Positions 40,231-63,800 of a DNA stretch of 64,000 bases are shown here, piece after piece (position 1 is the first letter of the stretch; each line of letters opens with the position of its first letter). Position numbers and translations under genes: made by a program. This stretch comes from Prorocentrum cordatum (taxonomy: Eukaryota; Sar; Dinophyceae; Prorocentrales; Prorocentraceae). Location: assembly GCA_963575745.1 (NCBI GenBank), contig CAUYUJ010000348.1, positions 112,710 to 176,709 on the forward strand. The letters run 5' to 3'. The notes beneath the pieces are model-generated. The model ran no database searches and was not told where the DNA came from. It was given only the letters and a program-made list of their open reading frames with translations.

Positions 40231-40885
40231 TCCCTCCTCCTCTTCCTCCTGCTCCTCCTCCTCCTCCTCCTTCTCCTCCTCCTCCTCCTCCTCCTCCTCC
40301 TCCTCCTCCTCCTCCCTCCTCCTCCCCCCCTCCTCCTCCTCCTCCTCCGCCTCCTCCTTCCGCCTCCTCCTCCTCCTGTTCCTCCTCCCCGCTCCTATCT
40401 TATCCTATCCATCTCCTTGCATCATTATTAGCATTATCTTTATACTTATCCCCCCAACCTCCACCTCCTCCTCCTCCTCCTCCCCCTCCTCCTCCTCCTT
40501 ACCCTTATCCTTATCCTTTTATCCATATTCCTGATCCGTATCCTCATCAACCTCCTCCCTCCTCCTCCAGCACTTCTCCTCCTCCCCTCCTCCCCCTCCT
40601 CCTCCTGCCCTCCTCCTCCTCACTTATCATTATCATGATCCTTATCCTTATCCGTATCCTTATCTTCTCTTCCCCCTCTCATAATCCTCCTCCCTCCTCC
40701 TTCCTCCTCCTCCTCCTCCTCCCATCCTCCTCTGTTTGCCCTCCTCCCCCTCCTCCTCCCCGACTACTCCCCATCCTCTACCTCCTGGTTTCCTCCGTCT
40801 CCTCCTCCTCCTCATCATCATCCTCATCCTCATGCTCCCGCCTACTCTTTCTCCTCCTTCCCATCCTCTTCTTCCTCCTTCTCCT
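40225..40885. repeat. (TCC)n and (CCTTAT)n tracts
   Basis: TCC repeats are interspersed with the hexamer CCTTAT/ATCCTT. Confidence 0.93.
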
Positions 40886-41005
40886 CCATAGCCATGTTGG
40901 ATCAATATGTCTTTGTCCCTGGGGCAGAGAGTGGATACTCGAGTCCGAGACCAGAGCAGGAAGATTACGTGAGCTCCTGCTGGAGCAACGAGTCCTCATG
41001 GTCAT
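40886..41005. other. Short unique island with spliced-leader-like start
   Basis: CCATAGCCATGTTGGATCAA at the left matches the dinoflagellate spliced leader at 17 of 21 positions. About 100 bp of non-repeat sequence follows before (CCTTAT)n resumes. This may be a decayed retrocopy or chance. Confidence 0.25.
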
Positions 41006-43309: not shown

Positions 43310-43884
43310 ACGCTGCGGACGCTGCCCTGCCCAGGCGAACTAAACGGCCAGATCCTGCTAATCTTGGAAACCGTTCCTGGGAGGATACCCTTCCTACGCT
43401 TCCTGAGCGCACTGCTTATCTTCCTGGTGCAACCCCTGGGGTCAGTTAGCTTCTTGGAAGCCTCCACCGTGATTACAAAAGATACTAGGGGGCCCTGCAT
43501 CAAGCCAGCCGACGTATAAGGAATGATGAAGCCTTTTGTGCTGCTTGAGGACCTCCTCCATGGCTGGCAACATCGCCTGACGGCCAAACCTGGGCTTGCG
43601 GGAGACGATCCTCAGGCAGCTGATGCGGCGATACCTCTGATCATCCCAGACTGGCTGATGCTCCTCTACGAACGGCCTGGGCGCTGCTGGCCTTGGGTCC
43701 TTGGGTAGCTCTTGCAACTTCCCCCAGACATCCTCGGACATTGGCCAGGATCCCCAAATCTTACCGGCCCCGACCACGGCCTCCAGATGCAACTCATGCG
43801 CGGCAACATGCCCATCAACGACGTCAGGTGCTAGGCGGTGGATGCCTGCCCCCTGTCCTGAAAAGTAGTCCTCCGCTTTGTTCC
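43310..43884 (-). pseudogene. LINE-1 region between RNase H and 3' ORF
   Basis: The minus-strand frame 43442-43792 reads SEDVWGKLQELPKDPRPAAP and RFGRQAMLPAMEEVLKQHKR, protein-like but unassigned. It is in element order and therefore probably LINE coding sequence. Confidence 0.4.
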
Positions 43885-44372
43885 CTAAGATGTACCTCCG
43901 ACCTGCTCATCGATGCTGCCCTCCTCCTTCCTGTGGCCCTTGGTCTCAACTAGGCGTCGCCATTCCCCTCCTAGAGGCGCGCGACTGATGCGACGCCATG
44001 CTCTCGAGAAACGGGACCTCCCATCGATGTAGGTCTGGATGGATTTGCGGGTAAGCGCCGCGCAGTCCACAACATACTTGTTTGTAGAAGCTGCTCTTGC
44101 ATGGAGGACCGCCATCCGAAGAACCCCATGTTCGCCGTCAACGGCCGTCTGGTCTCCGAAAGACGGTAATCCACCGAGGATGGCGCGTTTGAGTGAGTTG
44201 TCGTCGAACCCGCTCTGGCTCGGCGGTGGATGTCGGGGTCAAGGCAGGAGCCATCCGCGAAGATCTCGCTATCCGGTCCGAACTCGAAAGGGGCACATGG
44301 CCCATTAGAATCAACGCAGCGGGTATCCCATGCTTCCAATCGAAGATCTAATTGGATTCTGGGCGGCCACAA
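43885..44372 (-). pseudogene. LINE-1 RNase H domain, frameshifted
   Basis: The minus-strand frame 43971-44372 has SEIFADGSCLDPD with the first catalytic Asp in the DGS motif. The frame 43885-44115 continues with KYVVDCAALTRKSIQTYIDG, SRFSRAWRRI and KGHRKEEGS, matching the third acidic residue and the His region. The two halves are in different frames, so a frameshift lies near 44100. Confidence 0.65.
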
Positions 44373-44439
44373 GTGCGAAAATTATCCAAGTGCGACCCTG
44401 CCTAGGAGTTGGAGCCCCTAGGCACGCAGCATTCGTAGC

Positions 44440-44975
44440 AACAGTAAAGCTGAGCTAAAGCTAAGCTAAAGCTAAAGCTAAGCTACAGTTAAGCTAAAGC
44501 TAAGCTAAAGCTAAGCTAACGCTAAGCTAAAGCTAAGCTGAAGCAAAGCTAAGGCTGCTAAGCAAATCTGAGCTAAAGCTAAGCTACATCTAAGCTAAAG
44601 CGCAGCTAAAGCTAAGCTAAAGCTAAGCTAAAGCTAAGCTAAAGCTAAGCTAAAGCTGAGCAGAAGCTTAGCTTTAGCTTTAGCTAAAGCTAAGCTAAAA
44701 CTAAGCTCAAGCTGAGAAAAAGCTAAGCTACAGACAAGCTAAAGCTAAGCCAAAGCTAAGCTCAAGCTAAGCTCAAGCAAAGCTAAAACTAAATCTAAAG
44801 CTAAAGCTAAAGCTACAGCTAAGCTACAGCTAAGCTAAAGGCTAAGCTAAAGGCTAAGCAAAAGGCTAAGCTAAAGCGTAAGCTAAACGCTAAGCTAAAC
44901 GCTAAGCTAAACGCTAAGCTAAAGCTAAGCTAAAGCTGAAGCTAAAACTAAAGCTACAGCTAACGCTAAAGCTCC
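44440..44975. repeat. AAGCTAAGCTA satellite
   Basis: About 530 bp of AGCTAA/AAGCTAAGCT units, period 5-11, including one internal inversion near 44668 (CTTAGCTTTAGCTTTAGCTA). It lies between the LINE-1 RNase H and connection regions and is unlike any other repeat in the window. Confidence 0.95.
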
Positions 44976-45070: not shown

Positions 45071-45820
45071 CTAGGCAGAGCCTAGGTAGGGAACAAAAAG
45101 CTGAGTCTTCTGACGCATCTGCGACCATGTCCAATCCCATAGCCTTCTCCCTGAACTCCTTGCCACAAGAACAAGTCCATGATCGGTGATACTGGGCATC
45201 GGCTTCCTAGCAGTACGGGCATGTGGGTTGTAGATCATAGCCCCAGCCTGAGAGAACCTCACCTGAAATGAGAGAGCGTTCACGCCCCCTTCCTGGCCAT
45301 CTGGCAGAGGAAGGGCGGGGGAGGTGCACCCAGTTCGGTGCCGTCAACCTGGCGGGACTGCTGATCTTTCAAGTCGTCCGTAAAATGCTTGACGACGGTG
45401 ACTGGTGGAGTCTCCAGAATGTCAATGCTGGGGCCGGCTCTGGGGTGGAGAGTGGTCTGGTTGTCAAAGCACCAACCCGCTTCCTGAAGCCAGAGAAGCA
45501 TGTCGGATATGGGCCCTGCAGGGCGCCCTAGCCAAGAGGTGCTGGCCGACTCTTGGAACTTATGTTGCATTGCTCCGAACACAGACCTAAGCTCCTTAGC
45601 ATCTGGCCCATCTGCATGCATGCCGAGCTCTTCTCTCGCTGCCGTTGCTCCCCTCAAAAGTGCTGGATGCCAAGATGTTCGGGTCGGGAACTTCGTGCAC
45701 CTGCCACCAAATGTCCGCGCGATCCCCTTTCGATGGACACCCTGAAACAATCCTAGCCATTGAACGAAGCCTGTCTATCTCCGTGGGTGCGTAGCCATGG
45801 ACTTTGTCACCGTACATAAG
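45071..45820 (-). pseudogene. LINE-1 thumb/connection region
   Basis: In minus order are MYGDKVHGYAPTEIDRLRSM then ARIVSGC (45596-45817), typical of the post-palm segment of dinoflagellate LINEs. Next comes ATAAREELGMHADGPDAKEL (45280-45750) and RFSQAGAMIYNPHARTARKP (45071-45283). The frames differ, so it is broken. Confidence 0.55.
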
Positions 45821-45824
45821 TGCT

Positions 45825-46130
45825 GACCGAACACCAGGAGCAAAGAAACGGGCCCGATCCGAAGGTTTCTGACTTTCGATGCTCCGAAGTCGACAGAAGC
45901 GCGAGTAGGTCGTGACCCATCTGGCTTTCCCTGTCGAATTGCCTTCAGGGCGACGCTTGTGCTTTCCTGATCCGACGTCGATGCCTAGATGAGGCGCTGC
46001 AGGAACAGCGGCGCCTGCTACGTTGCCTTGAACTTCCTAAGCTCTCTTAAGCAACGGCCCTGAACTAGCTGTGATCGCAAGCTGATCAACTGCCAATTGG
46101 GAGGGGAAGAGCGGCCAGCGCCCACCTAAT
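45825..46130. other. LINE-1 interior, not resolved
   Basis: About 300 bp between the RT palm and the thumb. It should encode RT sequence by position, but no frame is readable. Confidence 0.4.
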
Positions 46131-46131
46131 C

Positions 46132-46941
46132 CTAGATCCAAACCACCAGAGAATATGAACACATTATTCTGGTGAAGGCCTCAGAGCTAAAAGTAATGCC
46201 ATCGATGTGGATGAATGCTGCAGCCTGCTCGTCAGTAGTTGACGAGACGCCCTCAAACATGGGCATGACATACATCTTAGCCGCTGTCGTAGCCGCCTCG
46301 GAACCGGCGACGGTGCCCTTGGAAGGATAGATACGTGGACCCACAACCCCATCCAGAAATATTCTTCGAGGGGTGGGATACTTGCGCAAAGCTAGGCGGG
46401 TGGCATGCAACGGGCACTGCAAGGCCTGGGAAACACGATGAAGCAAGTCGTGATCTAGGTTCTCATAGCACTGCTAAGTATCCCAGAGCATCGCCAGCGC
46501 GTTCATCCGATCTGCTACCCGTCCTTCTGCTCTGACTGCCGCTCGCCACGCGGTATCTTCCGCACTCCGCCCCCTGTTCACGCTGGACTGCGCCCCCCCC
46601 CCCCCCCCCCCATGCGTCCCCCCATTCCCTGGCGCCCCTGTTCCCCTCGCATCCTGGCAGACGCCGCAAAATGACCTATGGGTCGCCTGCCTGGCCCCTG
46701 GACCTCGCTTGCCAGAAGCGCGATAAGTTCCCGAACATGACGGGGCGGCGCGCTGACCATTTGAAAGATGCAAGAGCAGACGCATCATATACTGACCAGA
46801 TTCTGAGATGAGAGCGAAGAGTCGTGGATGAAACCCATCCGGGGTGCACGTCCTTTTTTTGAAAGCCTTGGAGGCCTCTGGATCGCGCCCGCGGTCGGCG
46901 GGGGGGGCGCTGGGGCGGGGGCTTGATTGACGAACCAACAA
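46132..46941 (-). pseudogene. LINE-1 reverse transcriptase palm
   Basis: One minus-strand frame, interrupted by TAG at 46474-46476, carries TCTPDGFHPRLFALISESGQ, then (after a local shift into 46578-46760) ELIALLASEVQGPGRRPIGH. It then has SAEDTAWRAAVRAEG, CYENLDHDLLHRV, LDGVVGPRIYPSKGTVAGSE and FIHIDGIT. The last is the catalytic Y/F-x-D-D box with the second Asp changed to Gly. The order matches the RT fingers and palm of non-LTR elements. The domain is inactive. Confidence 0.7.
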
Positions 46942-47599: not shown

Positions 47600-48505
47600 C
47601 GATGCTCCCCGGCTGCCGTCTACGTCGCCCCTGCGTCGCCCGCGCGGGTGGCCAAGAAGGCCTCGATAGGGCCGGCTATGTCTGGGCAATCGGGCGGCTC
47701 TCTGGGCGGCCCGACTGCAGCATTGCAATGAGCCACCTGGCATGGCCCTGGCACCGAGGGCAAGACATCCCTGATGGCTCGCTGCGCTGCGAGAGTGACT
47801 GCAGAGCGTGGGTGAGAGGCCGCATAGAGGTCAACCCCGATCGTGGGCGCCACTCTGTCGGGCTGGGCATAAACCAGGAAGCAGTCGATCTCGGTCCCGG
47901 CGTCCTGAACGCGGTAAGCGTGGGACTCTGGGGCACTGATGACCAGGTCCGAATCGTGAAGAGGAACGTGCTCTGACAGCACCGCGGGGTTCATATAGAA
48001 ATCCCCGCCAACGATACAAGGAAACCCGCGTCTCTTGATGTCGCCCCCAAGAGCCTTCAATATCCTGATGCTCTTCAGGCCCAATCCTACGCCGTCGTGC
48101 ATGTAGATAGCGCACAGTGCTAGTACCCCAAGCAGACGTTCTGAGAAAGCGTCTGACTAACCTAGCAGAGACCAGGGCAGGCGACGTGGTGGGCGAGTTC
48201 CAGATATCAAGATGCCGCTGAGCCAGAATAAAAAACTCCGCCTGAGGCATTGCCTGTATCTGGCTCGGTCGCAGTGACCCCGTAATGCTTCCAGCCTTTA
48301 GCTAGGAGTGTAGAGGCCACTGCAGCATAACTACCTTCTAACAGATTGTGCTCCTGAGTGTACACTATATCCCCTGGAACCTGCGGAACCAGCTCTGCAC
48401 TGGTGGCCCAGGAGTTCAGGTTGAGGGTGGCGCAGAGAAGAGAACGAATGCTACCCACGCTGCCGCAGCGCCCCTTCACCCACTGCAACTGCTGCGCCTG
48501 CTGCT
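47600..48505 (-). pseudogene. LINE-1 apurinic-like endonuclease, frameshifted
   Basis: The N-terminal half is at the end of the frame 48207-49499 (CATLNLNSWATSAELVPQVP, then DIVYTQEHNL with the catalytic Glu, and GGVFYSG). The C-terminal half is at 47620-48102 (IVGGDFYMNP for the GDFN motif, then GTEIDCFLVYAQP). The domain nicks target DNA to prime reverse transcription. A frameshift near 48150-48210 separates the halves. Confidence 0.65.
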
Positions 48506-48506
48506 C

Positions 48507-49499
48507 CCCCTCCTCCTGCACCTTTCCCATTGGCACCGCCGCCGAGCCCCCCGGCGCCTGCTGGATCAGCTCTACGATGGCTGGACGCCTGGCCTGTCTC
48601 TGCGGGACCTGATGCTGCTGCTGGTGCTGCTGCAGATGGCCCCTTCCTAAGACCAGGCTCTTTCTTGATATAGAGCTTCTGGGCCCCCTGTCGCGCTCCA
48701 GAGGCCAGGCAGATTTTTCGGATTTGCGCCAGGGGCTCTTTTCAATTCCCCTTCCATTGGTTCCCGAGGATCCCCTGGATCTCCTGGCCGCACTCCTCAT
48801 CAAGCTCCAGTTCCTCGTCCGAGTCCTCCACAGACCCTCCATCTGCGGCGATAGCTGCTGCTGCTGGGGAAGGTGCTGTTGAGACTGCCTCTGGCACTGC
48901 TGCTCCTCCTCCTGGACCTCCTCCCTCTGGAAGCTGGGGTGAGAGCGCGCCGAGGATCGAGAATAACTGCTGCTCACTCTGCCCTCTGAGACTCGGATCA
49001 TATACAAATTGCCCACTGCTTGCCTGAGGGCCCCCGCATAAGTGTCCCCCGTGGCCATAACTGGAGAGATAGCTGGACCCATCGATTCTTGACGCTTAGA
49101 GTGCACCTTGGAACGCGCCTCTGTGAGCTGGACCTGGGCTGCCTGCAGATCCTTACCCAATTTCGAACGCCACTCCGAATATACAGTGATAGCGCTTTCT
49201 GCTTCAATGATCTGGTCCTGAATCGTCTCAACCTCCCCTGCGAATTTCTTGACCTGCTTCTCAAACTTCTGGAGGATCGACGATGCCGAGGCCTGGGGCT
49301 CCTGGTGGGCCTTGTGGGCGGCCCAAGCCTGTACGAGAAGCCCTGAAGTTGCCTCGTCAAAACTGTGTCCTCCACTCCCCAACTGGAAGAGGTGGTGGAG
49401 GGAGTCGTGTGGGGAAGGGTTGGGGCGGTCGCAACGCCCACCACCCTTGGACCCACTCTCCTTTGGACGCCCCCCCTCGGGGGCCACGTGGCCCCCCAA
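48507..49499 (-). pseudogene. LINE-1 ORF1-like coiled-coil region
   Basis: A minus-strand frame encodes a clear coiled coil (ILQKFEKQVKKFAGEVETIQ, QIIEAESAITVYSEWRSKLG, KDLQAAQVQLTEARSKVHSK). A Gln-rich stretch follows before the endonuclease. LINE-3 has a comparable helix after its zinc finger. It probably mediates RNA packaging or multimerisation. Confidence 0.55.
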
Positions 49500-49873
49500 A
49501 GCAGACGGTGCTCGGTCATTCCGTCCCTTGCCTTTCCCGCGGCCCTTGGCCCAGGGAGGTGGTTTCTCGCGTCAATCCCCTCCATCTGCTGCTGGCTGGG
49601 GTGGACGAGCAGGACGGCCATAAAGAGCACCACAATGATACCAGAACTTGTTGTGCTCCTGGTTTTTGTTTGCAGCCGGAGCGGCCGCATGGATGACCGA
49701 ACGCTTTTGGTTGGGGGCCCCACTGGGACCCACGGCCATTCCCCTTCCCCATTGGGACCTCGAGCCTCGGGTCCTGAGCACCCGCGGCAATGGCGCCACG
49801 GAGGCGCGAACGGCCGAAGGAAGCCATACCTTTTCGCTCCTGAGCCGAGGATGGGAAGTTAAGGAGAATGCCC
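49500..49873 (-). pseudogene. LINE-1 5' end coding start, decayed
   Basis: After the spliced leader (minus sense) the first ATG is at 49827 (MASFGRSRLRGAIAAGAQ). The reading continues in pieces with a GKGNGRGSQWG-like stretch, and another frame contains NKFWYHCGALYG, perhaps the remains of a zinc finger. No single intact frame joins the coiled-coil region. Confidence 0.45.
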
Positions 49874-49895
49874 CTTGAGCCACAATGGCTACGGA
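49874..49895 (-). other. Dinoflagellate spliced-leader relic
   Basis: The minus strand starts TCCGTAGCCATT and ends GGCTCAAG, matching the 22-nt dinoflagellate spliced leader at 21 positions. The only change is TTTTGG to TTGTGG. It is followed by GGGCATTC, not a GT donor, so this is a spliced mRNA end and not an SL RNA gene. It marks the 5' end of LINE-1, directly against (GGA)n. Confidence 0.92.
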
Positions 49896-49896
49896 T

Positions 49897-50400
49897 CCCC
49901 TCCTCCTCCTCCTCCTCCTCCTCCTCCTCATCCTCCTCCTCCTCTTGCTCCTCCTCCTCCTCCTCCTCCTCCTCCTCCTCCTCCTCCTCCTCCTGCTCCT
50001 CCCCCTCCTCCTCCTCCTCTTCCTCCTCCTCCTCCTCCTCCTCCTCCTCCTCTCCTCCTCCTCCTCCTCCTCCTCCTCCTTGTCCTTAACCGTATCATTA
50101 CCCTTATCCCTTATCCACCTCAACCTCCTCCTCCTCCTCCTCCTCCTCCTCCTGTTCCTCCTCCTGTTCCTCCTCCTGCTCCTCCTCCTTCTCCTCCCCT
50201 CCTCTTCTCTTTCTCCTCCTCCTCCCCCCCCTCCTCCTCCTGTTCCTCCTCCTGCTCCTCCTCTCCTCCCTCCTCCTCTCCTCCTCCTCCTCCTCCTCCT
50301 CCTCTTCCTCATCTTATCCTTATCCTTATCCTCCTCCTCCTCCTCCTCCTTCTCTCCTCCTCCTCCTCCTCCTCTTCCTCCTCCTCTTCCCTCCTCTCCT
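49897..50400. repeat. (TCC)n tract
   Basis: TCC repeats with TGTTCC, TGCTCC and CTTATCC variants. This is the 5' border of LINE-1. Confidence 0.95.
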
Positions 50401-60474: not shown

Positions 60475-60680
60475 ATGACTCGAGGGGGTCTGGGTCCATC
60501 ACCCCCCCGTTGCTCGACGCCCGCGCCGTGCACGGCTCACGGCGTCCCGGGGGGTCTCGACCGTCTGCCGCCGTCGCTCTTGCAAAAACGCATCGCGCAG
60601 GAGGGGCGTCAAGCACGCTCCCGCCCCGCGCGCCGTGGCGGCAGGCAGACACAGCAGGGCGCGCGGCACCCCTTCTCCCT
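60475..60680. other. GC-rich spacer
   Basis: About 200 bp of unique sequence. Frames are open on both strands without convincing peptide character. Confidence 0.35.
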
Positions 60681-60683
60681 CCC

Positions 60684-60815
60684 CCTCCTCCTCCTCCTCC
60701 TCCTCCTCCTCCTCCTCCTCCTCCTCCTCCTCCTCCGCCTCCTCCTCCGCCTCCTCTCACTCCTCCTCCTCCTCCTCTTCCTCCTCCTCCTCCTCCTCCT
60801 CCTCCTCCTCCTCCT
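60684..60815. repeat. (TCC)n tract
   Basis: About 44 TCC units. On the minus strand this (GGA)n lies directly 3' of LINE-2. Confidence 0.97.
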
Positions 60816-60824
60816 TTTTCTTCC

Positions 60825-63800
60825 TCACGACGATCGAGGGCTGACCACATAGAGTCAGCGATCGTCATTCAGGAGCCGTCTGGCCCGCGACTTCTCCGCG
60901 CCCCTCTTGACCCAACGTGAAAGCAATGTCCGCGTCGACGCTCCCGTGTCCGTCGTCTCAAACCGGAGGTAATTGGTGGCGCGGTACACGCCGTAATTGA
61001 GTAGAGCCAATCGCAGCACATCTTCTTCGGAAGTTCCCGGGTCCAGGAGGAAGAATGAAAGCATGGCCGGCGGCATTTTCACGCCCAGCCCAACAGGTCT
61101 GTCGCGCTGCAGATGGCCCCACACAGCCGGACATACACTGTAGTGCTCGATGCTGTCGTCGCCGCTCTCGCAGCCGAGAAAGCACTGGCACGGCTTGTCG
61201 ACGCCGTTTTTCTCGGCGTGCTTCATGCGACGCCGGGTGACCCAGCCGTTGAACAACGTGCGGAGGTATGCTGACGCCACCCTGGGCGGGCACCACCTAT
61301 GCAGAATGTCGAAAACCTCCTAGACACGCGCCACCAATGCCGCCGCGTCACCTGCTAAATTCCACCGGGCGAGCTTGTGAGCAGTGCGATGTAGATGGTC
61401 AGGTCGGCAATGTCGACTGATCAGATCGACTGCAACAGACTGGAAGCTGGCTGAGCCGTGCCCGGCAGGGCCTTTCAGCACCCTCCGGATCCGGCTGCGG
61501 CAGATCCCGTCGTTCTCCAATTGCTGCTCTGTGCGGTGCAGGACAGCGAAGAAAGAGTTGGCGTGCCAGCTCCCGAACGGGCCTTGCAGCACTCCTTCAT
61601 CCAGCATGCGCAGTTCTTCGACGCGTTCTTTGCAATCCGGGGCGACAGTTTCAATCACTCGCAGCTTAGCGGCCCGCGCAACGCAGCGGGGTTGAGCGAA
61701 GGAAAGCTTGAACCCGAACGCCTCTCTTAAATTGCAGAAATCTTCAGGCATGATCCAATTTCCAGGGCCCGGAGCCAGACGACGTAGCGCCCAGGAGAAA
61801 ATGTCATCCATGTCCTCGGGCAAGTCCTCAAGCTGCATCACGAAGCTCAATACCGATATAATAAGAGTGTTGAAAACAATGATGTTCAAAAAAAATCCGA
61901 GGTGCCTCTGCGCCCAGATCAGCACCCGCTTCGTGAATTTCTCGATTGGCTTCTCCCATGTCATGTTGCCGGCGCCGGGCCCCGCCCAGTAACCGAGGTA
62001 TTTCCCGCGAAGGGAAATCAGAATGTCCCTCCATTGAGGCGCCAACTCGCGAATGAGAGACCTCACGTTGGACTCCGACTGAAAGCGCCGCAATGGGATA
62101 AACACTGTCTTCTTGATACTGAGAGCCAACCGGGATCTCTTTTCAAATTCTGAGAATAGCTTGTTGATAACTGGAACCGCCACCGAATAGTCTGCGATTA
62201 CTGCAGCTGTGTCATCTGCGAACGCTCTAACTACTTCGTGCCCAGACAGGTGCCGCGAAAGCTCGCGAAGCAAGATATCGGCGCAGATCGCGAACAGCAG
62301 CGGAGATAATGGGCAGCCCTGCCGGACTCCGCTCTCCACGGTGATGCTGTCGAAGAACTGGCCGCCCACTTTGATATTGTGCTTGTTCCGCACATAGAAC
62401 ATTTTCAACGCACGTATAAACTCTTGCGGAAGTCCAACAGCCCCCAGCGACTCCCACATGAAAGAGTGGTCCATGCTTGGGAACGCCGCGCGGAAGTCGA
62501 ACAGCAGAATGCATCCCCGGCGGGACGTCAGGGAAATCTTCTGCGCAGCGAAATCGATCTCCAGAACGTTCCTCAGCATCTGCCTGCCTGGAATGACCCC
62601 CTCTGAGACAAAGAAATTCGATGGGCCACTGCCTTCTCCAGCGCCCTCCGGAAGATAGATGCAAGAATGCGGTTGCTCGCGTCCACCACTGACAGCGGTC
62701 GCGTGTTCCCCGGCTCGTAGCACTCCGTGCCGCTGGGCAGAGCGGTGCCAGACCCCTTCGGCAAGCATATCAAGAAAGCTAGGTTGAAGTCGTCCGGCGG
62801 CTCGATCACCCCCTGCAGCATTCCCAACACAATGTCATACAATAAAGGGGATATGATATGTTTGAACAGTGTGAAGACAACGAATGGCACGCCATCCGGG
62901 CCAGGAGCAGAAGATGGAATATCATTTAATATAGCATCCACGTCTTCGATGGAGGGCGTAAGGTCCGCGAGGCTTGTGGTCAAAATGCCGCGACATCGTT
63001 CCAGCCATTTCCTCCGTAGCGTTTGATCCGTAGCCTGGATCTTGAAGGTACCCTGCCAGTGGTCAGATAAAACGCGTGCTATGAAAGATGGGTCGGATAC
63101 CACATCGCCGCTCTCGGGGTCCTTCACCGCTTGTATTGACCCGGAAGCTCCAGGAACCAGTTTGGACAGGTGTGCCAAGATGTTTGCCCTTCGCTGCCTG
63201 TATACCTCATCCGGGAGACTGTCCTGTCTAGCCCGGAGCTCCTCCAGTCTGTCAGCCGCTGCAGCGTGAGACAACTCTATGGCGTGATCCTGGAGCGCCG
63301 CGAAGCCCGGGTGCTCGGCTGCTCTAGGTGTAGGCGGCACCTCCTGCAAACGAGGGTAGATGCACTGCATTTGAGCGATGCCCTTCTCGTCGCCATGAAT
63401 CACAGCCCGCAGAAAACGTACAGTGGCAGCCAACTTCTCACTGGATGTTTGCGCCTCCTGTCCTGCCCGGGATTGCTTCACCTCCCTAGCAACGCGTTTG
63501 GCTGCCGTTTTCACCTGCTGCAGTTTTCGGAAAAATAGGACGCCAGCGGCCTCCAAACATGTGTTCGCGGACTCTTTCAAACGCTTTGAGAAGCCATCGT
63601 CATTCAAGATCCACGATGGAAATGGGGTCGGTTGTGTCCGCCCTTTCGGCCGGATGCCAAACGCCACAGGCTTGTGGTCTGATAGCTTCGACGGGCAATC
63701 CTTCAGAAAACAAAACGAATCGACGCATAGCAGACTGCCTGGATGAATGTTGGAGCACACGCGGTCCAGCCGGGAGAAGACGGAGGCGCTCTCGAACGTG

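What the first reader, a model, noticed from the sequence alone, without database searches (positions are those of the whole stretch)
49874..49895. Spliced leader fused to the 5' end of a LINE
The sequence shows a 21/22 match to the dinoflagellate spliced leader on the minus strand. It sits exactly at the 5' end of LINE-1 and directly against (GGA)n. It is followed by non-GT sequence. Trans-splicing of nuclear mRNAs with this leader is established for dinoflagellates, and leader relics are known in ordinary retrogenes. Here a retrotransposon itself seems to have been trans-spliced, then copied to its very 5' end. That would mean the LINE is expressed through host trans-splicing and can carry a leader to each new locus.
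Basis: partly seen in the sequence, partly recalled or inferred. Interest (0 to 1): 0.88.

Follow-up and report, generated by a model that had tools for sequence, protein, structure and literature searches.

The report
LINE retrotransposons headed by spliced leader
In this dinoflagellate genome many jumping genes of the LINE type begin exactly with the host's 22-letter spliced leader, mostly inside GGA or TCC simple repeats, which suggests that they borrow the host's trans-splicing to make their message and copy the leader into each new site.

Summary
A 21/22 DinoSL lies on the minus strand at 49895..49874, next to (GGA)n and followed by GGGG, not GT. The host assembly holds 14,218 exact leaders. 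The LINE-1 5' end has 40 further matches (40 of 319 candidates scored): 27 start within the leader, and all 27 carry it after a GGA-type array. Eighteen of these share 176 bases or more with LINE-1; nine share only about 60. Three have leader plus a truncated older leader. Of 11 internally starting matches read, 8 were readable; none runs further 5' without a leader, and one has the leader higher up. Among exact leaders sampled with about 6.8 kb downstream, 19 of 30 have a LINE reverse transcriptase, all in sense; controls 0 of 6. Six more 5' families start at the leader. Best explanation: LINE RNA is trans-spliced, copied to its end and inserted into GGA/TCC arrays, repeatedly. No RNA was seen. 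SL-tagged retrotransposons are suggested in print for flatworms; my searches showed no such report for dinoflagellate LINEs.

The parts
49874..49895 (-). spliced leader (21/22 DinoSL), 5' terminus of LINE-1
   Evidence: same junction in 27 of 27 genome copies that start within the leader
49899..50400 (.). (CCT)n array, read (GGA)n on the element's strand: insertion site
   Evidence: a GGA-type array stands before the leader in all 27 copies
48210..49571 (-). ORF1-like frame of LINE-1 (454 codons open); ends in the start of the endonuclease-like region
   Evidence: collinear tblastx match to the SL-headed LINE L021 at element positions 610-708
47623..48156 (-). endonuclease-like frame
   Evidence: by eye; tblastx match to SL-headed L061 at element positions 1773-2012; no Pfam hit
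45599..46473 (-). reverse transcriptase in two broken frames (46473-46135 and 46036-45599)
44445..44973 (.). TTAGCT-type tandem array between the RT and the RNase H-like part of LINE-1
43445..44381 (-). RNase H-like and C-terminal cysteine-rich stretches of LINE-1, broken
   Evidence: by eye only; no Pfam hit
40885..40906 (+). second leader relic (18/22), directly after (TCC)n, heading a 5' stub of another SL-headed LINE family
   Evidence: aligns with L030 and L032
61320..64000 (-). LINE-2: endonuclease and reverse transcriptase; 5' end beyond the window
   Evidence: Pfam RVT_1 5e-19, Exo_endo_phos 7.6e-06
60678..60815 (.). (CCT)n array, (GGA)n on LINE-2's strand, directly at its 3' end

Best explanation
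LINE-1 is an old member of a LINE family whose RNA receives the host spliced leader by trans-splicing. The leader is then the 5' end of the template, and reverse transcription runs to its first base, so a full-length new copy starts exactly with the leader. Insertion is into (GGA)n/(TCC)n arrays, in one orientation for this family. The resident leader offers AG acceptors (inside CCGTAG and at its AAG end), so a copy that is transcribed from upstream can be trans-spliced again: use of the inner AG leaves leader plus truncated leader, use of the end AG renews the leader without trace. Shown here from DNA: the junction, its recurrence, the 5' boundary, the array sites, leader stacks. Inferred: trans-splicing of the RNA, target-primed insertion, read-through transcription.
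For: 27 of 27 copies that start within the leader have it before the family's 5' sequence and after a GGA-type array. Truncated relics behind the leader in 3 of the 27 (L074, L078, L080), the form known from dinoflagellate retrogenes (PMC3229502, passages). LINE RT downstream in sense at 13 of 20 and then 6 of 10 exact leaders, antisense 0, controls 0 of 6. Seven unrelated 5' sequences joined to the same exon end (LINE-1 family plus the six). In the L009/L021 family the new leader stands before the whole older leader in one copy and after that older leader's inner AG in the other. ATG directly after the leader at 9 of 40 places, with open frames of 410 to 2302 codons in six of them. Leader stacks at 9 of 30 places, p<0.01, among them RT-bearing L017, L021, L025.
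Against: No RNA data. The LINE-1 relic behind its own leader is not significant (p 0.125). The 3' end of LINE-1 in the window is not flush with a GGA array. 11 of 40 sampled leaders have no TCC/GGA array before them, and 11 of 30 have no RT detected downstream. Controls are few (6).
Confidence: 0.88

Rival explanations
1. The leader was captured as DNA by ancestral LINEs and is now the element's own 5' end (perhaps a promoter or acceptor), inherited by ordinary copying without new trans-splicing at each round.
For: Most family copies have a single leader at the same junction (24 of 27); PMC6050394 (passages) proposes that a retroposed leader acts as a promoter.
Against: Leader stacks in the LINE-1 family and in L017, L021, L025; two acceptor positions in one family (L009/L021); many unrelated 5' families and two RT groups with the same terminus. 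It may hold between rounds but does not explain these.
Confidence: 0.08
2. The reverse transcriptase switched template at the 5' end of the LINE RNA to free SL RNA, as mammalian L1 does with U6 RNA (recalled).
For: Would also give a leader at the 5' end.
Against: The junction is at the leader's exon end and no SL RNA intron part was noticed behind it; only 2 of 40 sampled leaders are followed by GT. Truncated relics begin right after the inner AG.
Confidence: 0.03
3. The leader is a chance match, or a separate insertion beside this LINE.
For: Leaders are frequent in this genome (14,218 exact).
Against: 0 of 100 shuffles; the same junction in 27 of 27 copies.
Confidence: 0.005

Closest known systems
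Dinoflagellate retrogenes with DinoSL relics (Slamovits and Keeling 2008, not read; described in PMC6050394, PMC3229502, PMC12014239, PMC7245778, passages read)
   Same: Leader copied into DNA at the 5' end; truncated relic after the inner AG; repeated rounds.
   Different: Here the tagged RNA is the LINE itself, in multicopy families, with GGA/TCC arrays as sites.
SL-like loci on LTR and LINE elements of flatworms (PMC12582326, one passage)
   Same: Suggested origin: retrotransposon transcripts that received the leader were integrated.
   Different: There a remark on 597 discarded loci with partial leaders in another phylum; here families with exact leader termini, stacks and array sites.
Leader relics near dinoRNAV insertions in Symbiodinium (PMC10235124, passages)
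   Same: Leader near retroposed foreign sequence (6 of 26 RdRp ORFs within 500 bp).
   Different: A virus gene, not the LINE.
Trypanosomatid LINEs L1Tc and ingi with Pr77 (PMC8190864, abstract and passages)
   Same: LINEs in a host that trans-splices its mRNAs.
   Different: They carry their own promoter at the 5' end and make unspliced transcripts.
SymbioLINE-Dnmt and other Symbiodinium LINEs (PMC5890265, passages)
   Same: Dinoflagellate LINEs with two ORFs.
   Different: The passages shown do not mention a leader on the element.
Microsatellite-targeting non-LTR retrotransposons (PMC4640811, abstract in listing; others recalled)
   Same: Insertion into simple repeats.
   Different: Here GGA/TCC arrays together with a leader at the 5' end; the endonuclease here is APE-like by Pfam, whereas that abstract speaks of restriction-like enzymes.

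Membership tests
LINE (non-LTR retrotransposon) | Reverse transcriptase of LINE type | tested here: met
   SL-headed L031: RVT_1 1.1e-12 and human LINE-1 ORF2p 6.8e-10; LINE-1 of the window only by profile and below the Pfam cut-off
LINE (non-LTR retrotransposon) | APE-type endonuclease before the RT | tested here: met
   Exo_endo_phos above cut-off in L031 and L014 and LINE-2; L022 below cut-off; LINE-1 of the window by eye only
LINE (non-LTR retrotransposon) | 5'-truncated copies | tested here: met
   L091, L092, L093, L095 begin inside the element directly after a GGA-type array
LINE (non-LTR retrotransposon) | Target-primed insertion with a target-site duplication | tested here: inconclusive
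   Same-orientation arrays on both sides in 11 of 15 LINE-bearing places with an array (by eye); a duplication cannot be told within an array
DinoSL retrocopy | Leader at the 5' end of the copied sequence | tested here: met
   27 of 27
DinoSL retrocopy | Truncated leader relic (CCATTTTGGCTCAAG) behind a leader | tested here: met
   3 of 27 family copies; among RT-bearing sampled places L017 exact, L025 one mismatch. Not met at the window locus itself
DinoSL retrocopy | Trans-spliced transcript | not testable with these tools
   No transcript data at hand
SL RNA gene | Leader followed by a GT donor and the SL RNA intron | tested here: not met
   GGGGCATTC follows
Trypanosomatid-type LINE with a conserved 5' promoter (Pr77) | A shared 5' hallmark that drives unspliced transcripts | not tested
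   No search for a Pr77-like motif was made; at 9 of 40 leaders ATG follows at once, which leaves no 5' UTR in those

The most novel reading that the evidence does not exclude
In this dinoflagellate many LINE families have given up a 5' UTR and promoter of their own: host read-through transcription plus the host leader make their mRNA (in some, ATG directly after the leader), the leader is renewed at each round, and GGA/TCC arrays are the landing sites. Most DinoSL relics of this genome would then be LINE 5' ends and not host retrogenes, so relic-based retrogene counts need correction, and these LINEs would be the likely machine that also recycles host mRNAs.
Probability: 0.6. Interest if true: 0.88.

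Novelty: new variant of a known kind. Interest (0 to 1): 0.8.

Why it matters
A retroelement usually has to carry its promoter inside the copied RNA. Here the 5' end seems to come from the host's trans-splicing, so any transcribed array could launch a copy. It leaves a fossil record of trans-splicing rounds for each LINE family, names a candidate source of the reverse transcription behind mRNA recycling in dinoflagellates (PMC6050394, passages, calls the type unknown and leans to Ty1/copia), and warns that a leader relic upstream of an ORF is not by itself a host retrogene. It can be tested at once with 5'-complete cDNA.

Tried and rejected
Protein database search with a single LINE-1 frame: 7993 candidates scored, none at 1e-3. 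Relatives in viral contigs by two LINE-1 frames: none confirmed. Copies of LINE-1 within the window: none. The idea that (TCC)n is needed as a polypyrimidine tract for re-splicing: not general, since the LINE-1 family sits after GGA-type arrays in all 27 copies and still has truncated relics. An older leader behind the LINE-1 leader at +20..+34: p 0.125 by shuffling, not claimed. LINE-2's 5' end beyond the window edge: 4391 of 4501 bases read N; left alone. Genome-wide counts of array-leader junctions and of the T13G variant did not complete.

Rows left out of counts: the 19 of 30 count leaves out L004-L013, for which only about 1.5 kb downstream was held. Of these L008, L010, L012 have ORF1-like similarity to RT-bearing elements and L004, L009 share 5' ends with such elements or with one another; they are not counted as LINEs. 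The 10 test places L060-L069 skip five listed places (one on C16, four on C26) so as to take one per contig. Two of the 13 internally starting LINE-1 matches were not fetched because they are second pieces of copies already read. The binomial p for arrays used 29 of 40 at 0.45 or more against a background measured at 0.5 or more; at 0.5 it is 27 of 40.

Full report
Check of the observation. The 22 bases at 49874-49895 on the minus strand match the dinoflagellate spliced leader at 21 of 22 positions; no shuffled window has a match even with 3 mismatches. On the same strand a (GGA)n array ends 3 bases before it and GGGGCATTC follows, so it does not look like an SL RNA gene. Below it in sense lies a decayed LINE. 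The window holds no second copy of it, so the claim that the leader is the LINE's 5' end needed copies from elsewhere.

Host genome. The assembly (G000, 4,128,499,153 bp in 21,875 contigs, C1 3,562,531 bp) fits Prorocentrum cordatum CCMP1329 (4.15 Gb, largest scaffold 3.56 Mb, GC 59.7%; PMC10666404, passages); the number of pieces differs (22,724 scaffolds there), and the species is my inference. The exact 21-base leader occurs 7,201 + 7,017 times, the reversed control 0 times. A leader in a 64-kb window is therefore not rare here; its position is the finding.

LINE-1 family. A search with the 646 bases from the leader inwards gave 40 matches besides the window itself (319 candidates, 40 scored). 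Twenty-seven begin at base 1, 2 or 6 of the query. All 27 were read with about 120 bases upstream (20, 7). All have the leader: 16 at 22/22, 6 at 21, 3 at 20, 1 at 19, and L088 with an indel (14/22 ungapped). In 24 it is followed directly by the family's 5' sequence, in three (L074, L078, L080) by a truncated older leader first. All have a GGA-type array directly before the leader or within about 10 bases, some of them degenerate; none has TCC. Eighteen of the 27 share 176 bases or more with LINE-1; nine (L089, L090, L102-L108) share only about 60 bases, and what lies further in these was read only in L089 and L090, where it differs from LINE-1. Whether the 18 are LINEs beyond the 646 bases was not tested. 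Of the 13 internally starting matches 11 were read: three run into N (L096, L099, L101); L094 has a 21/22 leader and the family 5' start about 70 bases further up, so it is an internally deleted copy; L091, L092, L093 and L095 start directly after a GGA-type array, L097 and L098 (alike) about 30 bases after one, as 5'-truncated LINEs would; L100 has an unlike C-rich flank. None of these 8 readable ones continues past the leader position without a leader.

Other LINEs. Forty exact-leader places were read: the first 30 listed and ten further ones, one per contig; this is not a random draw. Thirty of them have about 6.8 kb downstream. RT profiles find a LINE RT in sense in 13 of 20 (L014, L016, L017, L018, L020, L021, L022, L025, L026, L027, L030, L031, L032) and in 6 of the next 10 (L061, L062, L064, L065, L066, L067), in antisense in none; 6 control stretches give 0 (Fisher p 0.026 for the ten alone, 0.006 together). 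The profiles were trained on the first 20 and the window. They form two RT groups: LINE-1 falls with L016, L021, L022, L025, L027, and the window's LINE-2 with the rest; no tree was made. LINE-1 is also collinear with L021 and L061 from ORF1 or endonuclease to RT. L022 (2302 codons from an ATG directly after the leader, still open at the end of the stretch) has RNase H above the Pfam cut-off and RT and endonuclease below it; L031 (2292-codon frame) and L014 have RT and endonuclease above it. The RT of L031 matches human LINE-1 ORF2p among solved structures at 6.8e-10; L022 has no match there.

Exact boundary. Six further 5' families with two or three sampled copies (L030/L032/L062; L008/L020; L006/L066/L067; L018/L063/L064; L014/L060; L009/L021), each with at least one RT-bearing member, are alike from the leader on. 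In three of them the flanks before the leader are plainly unlike (L006 GGA array, L066 unique, L067 TCC array; L014 AT repeat, L060 unique; L009 unique, L021 GGA array); in the others both sides are arrays, and for L008/L020 a search of the longer upstream stretches found no similarity. The window's second relic (40885-40906, 18/22) is a 5' stub of the L030/L032 family. At 9 of 40 places ATG follows the leader directly, with frames of 410 to 2302 codons in L004, L008, L010, L020, L022, L061 and short ones in L030, L032, L062; in L014 the ATG is at +3 with 1438 codons. For those elements the leader is nearly the whole 5' UTR.

Arrays. A TCC or GGA array lies directly before the leader in 22 of 30 and 7 of 10 places (0.45 or more of the last 60 bases; 27 of 40 at 0.5 or more); in the window 5.6% of 60-base stretches reach 0.5. 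In 11 of the 15 LINE-bearing places with such an array, one of the same orientation is met again past the RT (L016, L017, L018, L020, L021, L026, L030, L061, L062, L064, L067, by eye); in L022, L031 and L065 none is met in the stretch held, and L032 has only the other strand. The 3' end of LINE-2 is flush with (GGA)n. I read the arrays as target sites. The 3' end of LINE-1 in the window is not flush with an array.

Mechanism. From DNA: leader as exact terminus, junction at the leader's exon end, recurrence, leader stacks at 9 of 30 places at p<0.01 including RT-bearing L017, L021, L025, and in the L009/L021 family a new leader placed at two different points of one older leader. This is what trans-splicing onto a resident leader would give. 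Inferred: upstream transcription through the element, spliced RNA as template, target-primed insertion. Inheritance of the leader as element DNA may occur between rounds but does not explain the stacks or the unrelated families.

Known and new. Host retrogenes with leader relics are known (PMC6050394, PMC3229502, PMC12014239, PMC7245778; passages). Leader relics near viral insertions are reported (PMC10235124, passages). One passage on flatworms suggests that 597 discarded leader-like loci on LTR and LINE elements come from trans-spliced retrotransposon transcripts (PMC12582326). Trypanosomatid LINEs are described as having their own promoter and unspliced transcripts (PMC8190864, abstract and passages). 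Searches showed no paper on dinoflagellate LINEs that start with the leader; only listings and passages were seen, the library lacks most subscription papers, Slamovits and Keeling 2008 was not looked up, and Song et al. 2017 is not held. I file it as a new variant of a known kind: LINEs whose 5' end is supplied by host trans-splicing, with GGA/TCC arrays as sites.

Noticed in passing
window 40885-40906 (+): A second leader relic (18/22) directly after (TCC)n; the roughly 100 bases behind it belong to the SL-headed family of L030 and L032.
   Followed up: yes
window 44445-44973: A TTAGCT-type tandem array lies between the RT and the RNase H-like part of LINE-1.
   Followed up: no
window 60816-61320 (-): LINE-2 ends in a predicted strong hairpin and an A-rich stretch flush with (GGA)n.
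   Followed up: partly
L089, L090, L102-L108: Nine SL-headed copies share only about the first 60 bases with LINE-1; in L089 and L090 a different sequence follows, as if 5' ends were exchanged between elements.
   Followed up: partly
L026, about 3.9 kb behind its leader: A further leader begins inside the next (TCC)n array.
   Followed up: no
L001 2746-2765 and 2893-2912; L002 9134-9153; L003 5863-5882: Leader sequences stand upstream of ORFs in contigs filed as viral; L002 and L003 (alike) have the same T13G change as the window.
   Followed up: partly
L083: A LINE-1 family copy has the T13G change together with other changes; whether T13G is a leader variant or decay is open.
   Followed up: no
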